In this document: in pieces, positions 9,425 through 54,448 of the stretch | How the letters are laid out: each line of letters starts with the position of its first letter | How positions within the stretch are numbered: the first letter of the stretch is position 1 | Assembly: GCA_028279725.1 (NCBI GenBank) | Contig: JANQNE010000007.1 | Location: 1-64,000, forward strand | Reading direction: 5' to 3' | DNA: 64,000 nt | DNA from: Candidatus Nanoarchaeia archaeon | GTDB lineage: Archaea; Nanobdellota; Nanobdellia; Woesearchaeales; JANQNE01 | Notes under the pieces: generated by a model | The model's database searches: none | What the model saw: the letters and a program-made list of their open reading frames with translations, nothing else | What the model was told of the DNA's origin: nothing | Made by a program: the position numbers and the translations under genes

Positions 9425-9487
9425 TCTTTCACCTGATTTAACCTATCACCCCCATAACCAACTATCAAGAACTCAGAATATAAAAAC

Positions 9488-10141
9488 TTATCCTCTCAAC
9501 TTCCTTCCAACATAACCTTCAGGAACATCCTCTTGATGCCTTTTTCCTCTTATCTCCCAGTTCCCTCTAAAATCCTCATCATCACTCACTTCAATCTCTG
9601 TTATCCACTTAATCCATTTATATCCCCATTTCTCTTCAGCAACAAGCTGGAAAGGAAAACCATGTGTTGCAGGAATTGTCATATTGTTCATCTTATAGGC
9701 CATTATCAGATCCTTACTCATAAACTCATCAATTAAAAAAGTTGAAGCATAGCCGTCATCAGCATGGAATATCAATATCTTCCCCTCAGGTTTTATGCCA
9801 GCCTCATCAAGCAACTCCTTCACCAACATACCTTCCCAAAGGATCTTAACACTCCATCCTTCAACACAGTTTAATGTGACAACTTTCTTATAGCTCTGAT
9901 AATTATCCAGTATCTCGTCGTAAGTATACTCCTTCTCTTCATCAACTAGCCCTGTAATCCTTAGCTTATACTCGCTTTTATTGATATATCTTGGTCCTCT
10001 GATAGAATTCTCCCTAAAATCTTCAAAAGATCCCAGCTTCTCTCCCTGATACTCTTCCACATAAGTAGAAGGAAGCTCAACAGGTTCATAACTAGCACAG
10101 CCAGCCAGCAAAACCAAAAATAATATCATTATCTTTTTCAT
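9488..10141 (-). CDS. Lipoprotein with sulfite-oxidase-type molybdopterin domain
   Basis: A 217-residue protein begins with a lipoprotein signal (MKKIMILFLVLLAGC, lipobox LAGC with Cys15), so it should be lipid-anchored outside the cell. The rest is a compact oxidoreductase molybdopterin domain of the sulfite oxidase/MsrP fold. The strand before the ligand is TLNCVEGWS, with Cys92 at the molybdenum-ligand position. GMLVKELLDEAGI, ADDGYASTF and ATHGFPFQLVAEEKWGYKWIKWITEIEV then follow in family order. The protein is shorter than MsrP or full sulfite oxidases and has no dimerisation domain. No molybdopterin-synthesis gene is in the window, so metal loading is uncertain. It lies one base from the Tad-like operon and may belong to it. 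Confidence 0.8.
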   Translation of the reverse strand: MKKIMILFLVLLAGCASYEPVELPSTYVEEYQGEKLGSFEDFRENSIRGPRYINKSEYKLRITGLVDEEKEYTYDEILDNYQSYKKVVTLNCVEGWSVKILWEGMLVKELLDEAGIKPEGKILIFHADDGYASTFLIDEFMSKDLIMAYKMNNMTIPATHGFPFQLVAEEKWGYKWIKWITEIEVSDDEDFRGNWEIRGKRHQEDVPEGYVGRKLRG

Positions 10142-52693: not shown

Positions 52694-53323
52694 ATGAAAA
52701 TAATTATGTTAGGGGCTCCTGGAGTAGGAAAAGGAACAATAGCAAAAAAGCTGATAGAAAACCACAACATACCTCAGCTGTCAACAGGAGATATGTTAAG
52801 AGCTGCAATAGCAGAACAGTCAGAATTAGGTATGGAAGCAAAAAAATTCATGGATGCAGGCAACTTAGTTCCAGATGATGTTGTCATAGGATTAATCCAG
52901 GAAAGGATAAAACAGGATGACTGCAAAGAAGGATTCATATTAGATGGATTTCCAAGAACAATACCTCAGGCAGAAGCATTAGACAAGATAACAGAGATAG
53001 ACAAAGTTGTTAACTTGACAGCTCCTGATGAACTTATAATCAAAAGGCTTTCTGCAAGAAGGACATGTAAAGGATGCGGAGCTATATTCAATGTGATCTT
53101 TATCCCGCCGAAAGAAGAAGGAAAATGTGACAAGTGCGGAGGAGAACTTCTCCAGAGAGATGATGACAAGGAAGAATCTGTAAAGAATAGATTGGTTGTC
53201 TATGAAAAACAGACAGCTCCTCTGATAGATTTCTACAGAAACAAAGGTATCTTGTCAGATGTTGACGGTTCACAAGAGCTTCCAAAGATTGTATCAGATA
53301 CAGAAGCAGTATTAGCTAAATAA
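52694..53323 (+). CDS. adk: Adenylate kinase, bacterial type with zinc LID
   Basis: Adenylate kinase interconverts ATP, ADP and AMP. The P-loop LGAPGVGKGT is near residue 7. The AMP-binding parts are STGDMLRAAIAE and LDGFPRTIPQAEAL. The LID has CKGCGAIFNVIFIPPKEEGKCDKCGG, a four-Cys zinc site. This is the bacterial/eukaryotic Adk family of about 210 residues, not the short archaeal AdkA family, so gene transfer is likely. I start at ATG 52694 rather than TTG 52682. It follows the 150-residue unknown by 4 bases. Its 3' end overlaps truD by 12 bases on the opposite strand. Confidence 0.95.
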   Translation: MKIIMLGAPGVGKGTIAKKLIENHNIPQLSTGDMLRAAIAEQSELGMEAKKFMDAGNLVPDDVVIGLIQERIKQDDCKEGFILDGFPRTIPQAEALDKITEIDKVVNLTAPDELIIKRLSARRTCKGCGAIFNVIFIPPKEEGKCDKCGGELLQRDDDKEESVKNRLVVYEKQTAPLIDFYRNKGILSDVDGSQELPKIVSDTEAVLAK

Positions 53324-54223
53324 GCTTGCAACAAATACAGTTGCATAGCTTCCTTTAGGAAGAAAAAATCTTAATTCTATTTTATTTTCTTTTTTCTCGA
53401 TCTCAAGATCTTCGACATCTACAAAAACTCTTCTCTCCCCGCCTTCAGCACTAAGCTCTGGGATCTCTCTGATTATAAAATCCCTGTAATCTATTCCTTC
53501 CTCATCCATAAGATCCTGGGCAATCTTCTCAACCTTATAATCCTCAAATTCTGTCCCAAAACCAATGATTGGAAGATCAATATCATCCTCGATCTTCTCA
53601 GCCATCTTGTTCCACAATAAAGACTGGTATGCATGGACATATATCCTAAGTATCTTCTTAGGAATATTTCTCAAAGCTCCGACATAGTCCTTCTCTTTTT
53701 CTTCAAGATGTTCTCTGACCTTATCTTGAGATTCAGCTATCTTCTCAGCAGCAGACTTAAAATCACCTTTGATAATCAGCTTTCCGATCTCAGCATTCTG
53801 CCCGGAAAATCTCTGTTCTCCATAAAGATTCCTCATCTTATTTTTCGCTTCAGGAACATCATCTACACCACTAACAATTATCCTAAATTTGTTCCCTTTA
53901 AGATCCCCTAAAGAAAGCGGCTTATCATAATGGCCAAAAAATTCAAGCTCAATATCTTTGATTTTCAACTCCTCAATCTTCTCCTTAGAAACCTTTGATA
54001 TTGAGATCAACTGCTTTGTCACAGCCCTCTTGTCTTTAGTTCCTGCAAACCCTATAAACTTTGCCGGAATATTCAAAGACTTAGCTATCCTCACAACTGC
54101 ATCCATGGTATTGTAATTGGTCTTAGTCATCCACCAAAGTGAATATTCCCCGCTCTGTTTAGGTTCTATATTTGTAACTTCGTCAACCCTGAAATCTTCC
54201 GGCTCTTGTTTTATCCCATACAT
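53312..54223 (-). CDS. truD: TruD-family tRNA pseudouridine synthase
   Basis: TruD converts uridine 13 in tRNA (and sites in other RNAs) to pseudouridine. The family signature is intact: FAGTKDKRAVTKQLISI near residue 60 with the catalytic Asp64, LGDLKGNKFRIIVSGV near 103, and NLYGEQRFSG near 128. PKKILRIYVHAYQSLLWNKMAEKI near 190 and a C-terminal strand ELRFFLPKGSYATVFVASL follow. The length (303 aa) is at the short end because the insertion domain is reduced. It is divergent from the intron-split tRNA-Arg gene, whose first nucleotide lies 55 bases beyond its start. A role in tRNA maturation is consistent with that neighbour. Confidence 0.95.
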   Translation of the reverse strand: MYGIKQEPEDFRVDEVTNIEPKQSGEYSLWWMTKTNYNTMDAVVRIAKSLNIPAKFIGFAGTKDKRAVTKQLISISKVSKEKIEELKIKDIELEFFGHYDKPLSLGDLKGNKFRIIVSGVDDVPEAKNKMRNLYGEQRFSGQNAEIGKLIIKGDFKSAAEKIAESQDKVREHLEEKEKDYVGALRNIPKKILRIYVHAYQSLLWNKMAEKIEDDIDLPIIGFGTEFEDYKVEKIAQDLMDEEGIDYRDFIIREIPELSAEGGERRVFVDVEDLEIEKKENKIELRFFLPKGSYATVFVASLFS

Positions 54224-54297
54224 GATCTGGGGTATTTTAGAAAACTATTAAAATATTACCCATTTCACAGCAGATATGCACCTGTAGCGCAGTCTGG

Positions 54298-54340
54298 ATA
54301 CTGTCAATTCGAAGAATTGACCGGATTGGCCGTAGGACAA
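54298..54340 (+). other. BHB intron 1 (D-loop) of tRNA-Arg
   Basis: A 43-nt intron. A canonical bulge-helix-bulge forms: central 4-bp helix GTCT (54292-54295) with GGAC (54335-54338), bulges GGA (54296-54298) and AAA (54339-54341), each cut after the second base. Beyond it, TAC/GTA and GTCAATTC/GGATTGGC extend the inner helix. Cutting there leaves the D-loop AGTCTGG plus ATA. Confidence 0.85.
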
Positions 54341-54381
54341 ATAGCGCGAAAGCCTCCTAAGCTTTAGGTCGGGGGTTCGAA

Positions 54382-54426
54382 TGCTTGGAGCTGAAAGCTA
54401 CAAGGTTTTCGACGCCAAGTCGAATT
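54382..54426 (+). other. BHB intron 2 (T-loop) of tRNA-Arg
   Basis: A 45-nt intron. Central 4-bp helix TTCG (54376-54379) with CGAA (54421-54424), bulges AAT (54380-54382) and TTT (54425-54427), inner helix GCTTGG/CCAAGT, outer helix the T-stem GGGGG/CCCCT. Cutting after the second base of each bulge joins TTCGAA to T and gives exactly the seven-base T-loop TTCGAAT. Confidence 0.88.
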
Positions 54427-54448
54427 TCCCCTCAGGTGCGCTTTTATT

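What the first reader, a model, noticed from the sequence alone, without database searches (positions are those of the whole stretch)
54278..54440. tRNA-Arg(CCU) split by BHB introns in both the D-loop and the T-loop
Two inserts of 43 and 45 nt interrupt an otherwise perfect tRNA. Both have textbook 3-4-3 bulge-helix-bulge motifs whose cleavage after the second bulge base restores exactly a 10-base D-loop and a 7-base T-loop. There is none at the common 37/38 site. Multiple non-canonical tRNA introns are known mainly from Thermoproteales and a few DPANN; tRNA gene finders would probably miss or truncate this gene.
Basis: seen in the sequence. Interest (0 to 1): 0.8.

Follow-up and report, generated by a model that had tools for sequence, protein, structure and literature searches.

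The report
Twice-interrupted archaeal tRNA-Arg(CCU) gene
An uncultured Woesearchaeota-type archaeon encodes its only detected tRNA-Arg(CCU) in three pieces separated by two small protein-spliced introns, in the D-loop and the T-loop; the same two spots of the same tRNA are each interrupted in roughly a third of its relatives examined, although these organisms have the simplest splicing enzyme, which is thought to be choosy about its substrates.

Summary
Window 54278-54440 encodes tRNA-Arg(CCU) with a 43-nt insert at 19/20 (54298-54340) and a 45-nt insert at 59/60 (54382-54426); removing both gives a 75-nt cloverleaf. ARAGORN and Rfam miss it, and no intact tRNA-Arg(CCU) was found elsewhere in the ~96% complete assembly. 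The order (Woesearchaeales-type by contig matches) has the orthologous gene in many families, often beside truD as here. Of 89 genes parsed, about 26 have D-arm inserts, 28 T-loop inserts, 12 both. Exon-intron central helices covary across relatives, so these are BHB introns. The genome has one splicing endonuclease gene (180 aa, alpha4-type by gene number and length) without the CSL/ASL loop tied to broad specificity, plus RtcB. Two other tRNAs of the genome have T-loop introns that share sequence, suggesting intron spread. Correction: the T-loop motif is textbook 3-4-3, the D-loop motif is looser on its outer side. The gene is a new member of a known kind, best known from Thermoproteales. 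New as far as I could find: the order-wide hotspot in one tRNA, paired with a loop-less alpha4-type enzyme. No RNA evidence was available.

The parts
54278..54297 (+). tRNA-Arg(CCU) exon 1: acceptor 5' strand, U8-A9, D-stem 5' strand, D-loop up to G19
54298..54340 (+). D-loop intron, 43 nt, position 19/20; central helix GTCT(exon):GGAC(intron), bulges GG^A and AA^A
   Evidence: covariation in relatives
54341..54381 (+). exon 2: rest of D-loop, contiguous anticodon arm (anticodon CCT 54356-54358), variable loop, T-stem 5' strand, TTCGAA
54382..54426 (+). T-loop intron, 45 nt, position 59/60; strict BHB TTCG(exon):CGAA(intron), bulges AA^T and TT^T, inner helix GCTTGG:CCAAGT
   Evidence: covariation in relatives
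54427..54440 (+). exon 3: T60, T-stem 3' strand, acceptor 3' strand, discriminator G73; no encoded CCA
54248..54258 (+). TTAAAATATTA, candidate archaeal TATA box 20-30 nt upstream of the tRNA (inference only; no scan for archaeal promoters available)
53312..54223 (-). truD (tRNA pseudouridine synthase D), divergent neighbour; the pair recurs in many families of the order
   Evidence: PF01142, 3.4e-78

Best explanation
A functional, single-copy tRNA-Arg(CCU) gene whose transcript carries two BHB introns. Each intron pairs with the neighbouring D-loop or T-loop sequence to form a bulge-helix-bulge; the single EndA, probably acting as an alpha4 homotetramer, cuts after the second bulge base on each side, and RtcB joins the three exons into a 75-nt tRNA. 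The two introns sit at hotspots that are interrupted repeatedly in tRNA-Arg(CCU) across the order. Shown: gene anatomy, empty sites in orthologues, covariation of the splice-site helices, presence of EndA and RtcB, no intact second copy detected. Inferred: transcription, splicing, EndA oligomer, intron spread by transposition.
For: Exact restoration of a 10-base D-loop and 7-base T-loop. Intron-free orthologues have exactly those loops (e.g. L047, which is also beside truD). Central-helix covariation: D-loop class 95% of cells paired, with C-G:7/U-A:6 and G-C:11/A-U:1 changes; whole-structure score 0.675 against 0.282 shuffled and at most 0.170 when slid. T-loop class 99% of central-helix cells paired, R57 partner G-C:15/A-U:6/G-U:5; score 0.447 against 0.201 shuffled and at most 0.218 when slid. 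A second D-loop site (20a/21) covaries too, on 7 sequences. No intact tRNA-Arg(CCU) among 29 Rfam tRNA hits. One EndA, one RtcB. tRNA-Ile(GAT) and tRNA-Arg(GCG) of the same genome have T-loop introns at the same site, and those two introns share GAAGGATCAnnCCTTTGG.
Against: No RNA data. The isolated D-arm does not fold into the BHB as its minimum-energy structure, and the whole-precursor MFE pairs the D-loop differently. The genome is about 96% complete, so a second copy cannot be fully excluded. tRNA-Arg(UCU) (L009) might read AGG by wobble, so the gene need not be essential. Shuffle controls do not remove shared ancestry; the slid controls partly do. Splice-site alignments were built from pieces transcribed by hand.
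Confidence: 0.93

Rival explanations
1. A pseudogene: a tRNA-Arg(CCU) disrupted by two insertions and no longer spliced, its role taken by tRNA-Arg(UCU) or an unassembled intact copy.
For: Standard finders see no tRNA here; the assembly is not complete; tRNA-Arg(UCU) is present (L009).
Against: All stems and conserved tRNA positions are intact, and both inserts meet the BHB rule exactly. Relatives keep inserts at the same sites with compensating changes in exon-intron pairs. No intact copy was found.
Confidence: 0.04
2. Inserts that stay in the RNA as expansion segments, or are removed by another activity (for example self-splicing) rather than by EndA.
For: The genome's EndA lacks the specificity loop tied to relaxed BHB sites; the D-loop BHB is looser than textbook.
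Against: 43-45 nt is too short for a self-splicing intron (general knowledge). An insert splitting the T-loop would disrupt the tRNA elbow (general knowledge). Covarying 4-bp central helices next to fixed bulges are what EndA recognises.
Confidence: 0.03

Closest known systems
Multiple-intron tRNA genes of Thermoproteales (e.g. Pyrobaculum; Sugahara et al., cited in PMC4090602 and PMC8450103)
   Same: Two or more BHB introns in one tRNA at non-canonical positions, including D-arm and T-arm; 20/21 and 59/60 are listed sites (PMC4090602).
   Different: Those lineages have (alpha-beta)2 endonucleases. Here there is one EndA gene without the CSL, the lineage is Woesearchaeales-type, and the interruptions recur in one tRNA across many families.
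D-arm/V-arm/T-arm introns of Caldiarchaeum (PMC3293823)
   Same: Intron gain at non-canonical sites in an uncultured archaeon, linked there to mobile elements at tRNA genes.
   Different: There the heterogeneity is at tRNA-Thr(GGU) within one population; here introns of different sequence lie at the same two places in orthologous tRNA-Arg(CCU) genes.
Alpha4-type splicing endonuclease (Methanocaldococcus jannaschii, PDB 1a79)
   Same: One short gene, PF02778 plus PF01974 domains, 40% identity to the M. jannaschii enzyme in the alignment, no CSL.
   Different: The review PMC4090602 ties alpha4/alpha2 enzymes to few introns; this genome has many, including D-loop and T-loop ones. Oligomeric state here is inferred only.

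Membership tests
BHB-intron-containing archaeal tRNA gene | Exons join to a standard tRNA with all conserved elements | tested here: met
   matches intron-less orthologues
BHB-intron-containing archaeal tRNA gene | Bulge-helix-bulge at each exon-intron pair, supported across relatives | tested here: met
   T-loop strict, D-loop looser on the outer side; covariation
BHB-intron-containing archaeal tRNA gene | Splicing endonuclease and RtcB ligase encoded in the genome | tested here: met
BHB-intron-containing archaeal tRNA gene | Spliced product made in the cell | not testable with these tools
   no RNA data
Alpha4-type EndA | Single gene of about 180 aa with one N-terminal and one catalytic domain | tested here: met
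   in the order 118 of 120 genomes have a hit, nearly all exactly one
Alpha4-type EndA | No second (structural) subunit gene | tested here: met
   one PF01974 hit at E<=1; the Nanoarchaeum structural subunit is reachable by plain sequence search from this EndA (3iey_B, 4.7e-12), so a beta subunit would probably have been seen; genome about 96% complete
Alpha4-type EndA | Homotetramer | not testable with these tools
   no complex prediction or biochemistry
Broad-specificity EndA with CSL or ASL loop | 11-18 residue loop near the active site with a conserved Lys (PMC12397907) | tested here: not met
   the 10-residue insertion of the S. tokodaii enzyme is absent from the window genome's EndA and from five relatives, three of them from genomes with D- or T-loop introns (L198, L207, L218)

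The most novel reading that the evidence does not exclude
Woesearchaeales splice D-loop and T-loop introns, some with relaxed BHB geometry, using a loop-less alpha4-type EndA. The CSL/ASL loop is then not required for broad substrate use, or this enzyme has an unrecognised specificity element, and tRNA-Arg(CCU) is a recurrent intron target in this lineage.
Probability: 0.45. Interest if true: 0.65.

Novelty: new member of a known kind. Interest (0 to 1): 0.5.

Why it matters
tRNA sets of DPANN genomes look incomplete when finders miss such genes, so apparent gene loss may be an artefact. The current model (PMC6379350, PMC12397907) links non-canonical or relaxed introns to endonucleases with a special loop; an order rich in D- and T-loop introns that has a single loop-less EndA is a direct test of it. 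The same two sites in one tRNA filled by introns of different sequence at an orthologous locus also make a good system for studying how tRNA introns are gained and moved.

Tried and rejected
(1) Pseudogene: rejected on covariation and lack of an intact copy. (2) 37/38 intron: absent. (3) Own-genome D-arm and T-arm patterns gave no new complete tRNA; the T-arm pattern's control rate was as high as its hit rate. L224, L228 and L243 are chance matches on inspection. (4) First genome-contig scan with TruD found nothing; a T-loop-intron pattern scan gave names, but its bacterial hits are not taken as introns: L185, the one inspected, is a contiguous T-loop, as is the Nitrososphaeraceae hit L157. 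(5) The 'Methanosarcinales' hit L166 has the same tRNA region as L087 of this order, so it is probably mis-binned. (6) sigma-70 and terminator scan: nothing, not meant for archaea. (7) Parser errors (L090, L133 for D; L133, L138 for T) were removed by eye.

Full report
OBSERVATION. The sequence at 54278-54440 reads as a tRNA-Arg(CCU) with two inserts. A BHB scan finds for the D-loop a cut after 54297 and before 54341 (43 nt; GTCT:GGAC; bulges GG^A, AA^A) and for the T-loop a cut after 54381 and before 54427 (45 nt; TTCG:CGAA; bulges AA^T, TT^T; T-stem outside, GCTTGG:CCAAGT inside). Many 4-bp BHB-like combinations occur by chance in 163 nt, so the motif alone is weak; the combination of exact loop restoration and comparative evidence is what counts. 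The spliced 75-mer folds as a full cloverleaf. ARAGORN and Rfam miss the gene.

GENOME. The window is part of a 1.42-Mb, 12-contig genome, 95.8% complete. Rfam finds 29 tRNA places; none is an intact tRNA-Arg(CCU), and many others carry anticodon-loop introns. tRNA-Ile(GAT) (L027) has a T-loop intron at 59/60, and L023, read here as tRNA-Arg(GCG), has an anticodon-loop intron and a T-loop intron at 59/60; their T-loop introns share GAAGGATCAnnCCTTTGG, and no other copy of that stretch with fewer than 2 mismatches exists in the genome. This resembles the intron transposition described for Thermoproteales (Fujishima 2010, cited in PMC4090602).

TAXON. The genome is alone in its genus among those held; the 60 relatives drawn are all of the same order and each of another family. 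I therefore call the order Woesearchaeales-type.

RELATIVES. A pattern for the anticodon arm plus T-arm start of tRNA-Arg(CCU) matches in 157 of 292 genomes of the order (some are chance, see its control columns). In many genomes the gene lies just upstream of truD in divergent orientation, as in the window (compare coordinates: G006, G014, G026, G030, G033, G034, G036, G040, G042, G044, G046, G050, G054, and a little further off G013). The locus is thus orthologous and probably old. Parsing 89 genes gave, after removing parser errors, about 26 with an insert in the D arm or loop, 28 with a T-loop insert and 12 with both. Fractions are approximate because the pattern requires an uninterrupted anticodon loop and the loci were picked. 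Insert lengths run from about 14 to about 150 nt, and sequences mostly differ. Six D-loop introns (L048, L055, L081, L094, L132, L151) were aligned with the window's, and some share GGATT..GTAGGnCAAATA near the 3' end. Some relatives have further sites: 20a/21 in the D-loop (L042, L095, L116, L124, L131, L148, L150) and inserts in the anticodon stem (L045, L052, L113, L153). In family f39 all seven genes read (L146-L150; G038 and G244) have T-loop inserts, while D-loop inserts are present in only some of them (L148, L149, L150, not L146 or L147); this suggests an inherited T-loop intron site and more recent D-loop gains, but no tree was made.

COVARIATION. On splice-site alignments the D 19/20 class (15 sequences) pairs in 94.4% of cells with score 0.675 against 0.282 shuffled and at most 0.170 when slid. 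The T 59/60 class (26) pairs in 86.7% with 0.447 against 0.201 and at most 0.218. The D 20a/21 class (7) pairs in 95.2% with 0.579 against 0.246 and at most 0.229. RNAalifold, given no structure, picks the same outer and central helices. The inner helix of the T class pairs in only 58% of cells in the strict 3-nt register, so many relatives have relaxed T-loop motifs.

MACHINERY. EndA is one gene of 180 aa with PF02778 and PF01974 domains; RtcB is present. In the order 118 of 120 genomes (at 90% or more completeness) have EndA, nearly all exactly one. Alignment with the M. jannaschii and S. tokodaii enzymes shows no loop insertion in the window genome or in five relatives, three of them (L198, L207, L218) from genomes with D- or T-loop introns. 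Reviews hold that only (alpha-beta)2 and epsilon2 enzymes efficiently remove relaxed-BHB introns (PMC6379350) and that loop-bearing enzymes go with diverse introns (PMC12397907). The strict T-loop BHB of the window is compatible with a narrow alpha4 enzyme; its D-loop motif, and many T-loop motifs of relatives, sit less easily with that rule.

DISTRIBUTION. A narrow T-loop-intron pattern at phylum scale hit nine genomes: seven in this order and two elsewhere in the class. Of the latter, G414 is by its printed sequence a contiguous T-loop and G345 does not resemble a tRNA. The pattern misses many true cases (the window's own among them), so it gives no rate. Outside the class, a Micrarchaeota record (L173) and one titled Marsarchaeota (L172) carry the same kind of T-loop intron, so the site is not unique to the order.

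LITERATURE. Non-canonical and multiple tRNA introns are well known (PMC4090602, PMC8450103, PMC3293823). Full-text searches for Woesearchaeota or DPANN with tRNA introns showed no report of this pattern in titles or abstracts, but the library lacks most subscription papers.

VERDICT. Real and very probably functional; an ordinary kind of archaeal gene in an unexpected lineage and enzyme context.

Noticed in passing
L027 (G000:C6, about 9480-9587, minus): tRNA-Ile(GAT) with a T-loop BHB intron at 59/60, scored below the Rfam cut-off (26.7 bits).
   Followed up: partly
L023 (G000:C6:91766-91883, minus): tRNA read as Arg(GCG) with an anticodon-loop intron and a T-loop intron; the latter shares GAAGGATCAnnCCTTTGG with the intron of tRNA-Ile(GAT). 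ARAGORN finds no gene here.
   Followed up: partly
L020 and L234 (G000:C7:97130-98031, minus): A tRNA with anticodon GTT and an 85-nt anticodon-loop insert; a LAGLIDADG_3 ORF (E 8e-13) starts inside the insert and runs on past the gene, followed by a second partial T-arm copy (AGGTTCCTGGTTCAAATCC). Looks like a mobile-element scar, as in the Caldiarchaeum model.
   Followed up: partly
window 53312-54440: The truD / tRNA-Arg(CCU) divergent pair is conserved in many families of the order; TruD itself acts on tRNA. Reason unknown.
   Followed up: partly
L172 (6720-6820, minus) and L173 (6530-6640): T-loop introns at the same site of tRNA-Arg(CCU) in records titled Marsarchaeota and Micrarchaeota.
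   Followed up: partly
L100, L104: Relatives with an insert at the D-stem/D-loop border of tRNA-Arg(CCU); L104 has a second D-loop insert as well.
   Followed up: no
L019 (G000:C7:29910-30021, minus): ARAGORN calls tRNA-Leu(caa); reading the anticodon arm suggests tRNA-Thr(GGT) with a 37/38 intron.
   Followed up: no
L166: A contig labelled Methanosarcinales has the same tRNA region as Woesearchaeales-type L087, probably a mis-binned or mislabelled record.
   Followed up: no
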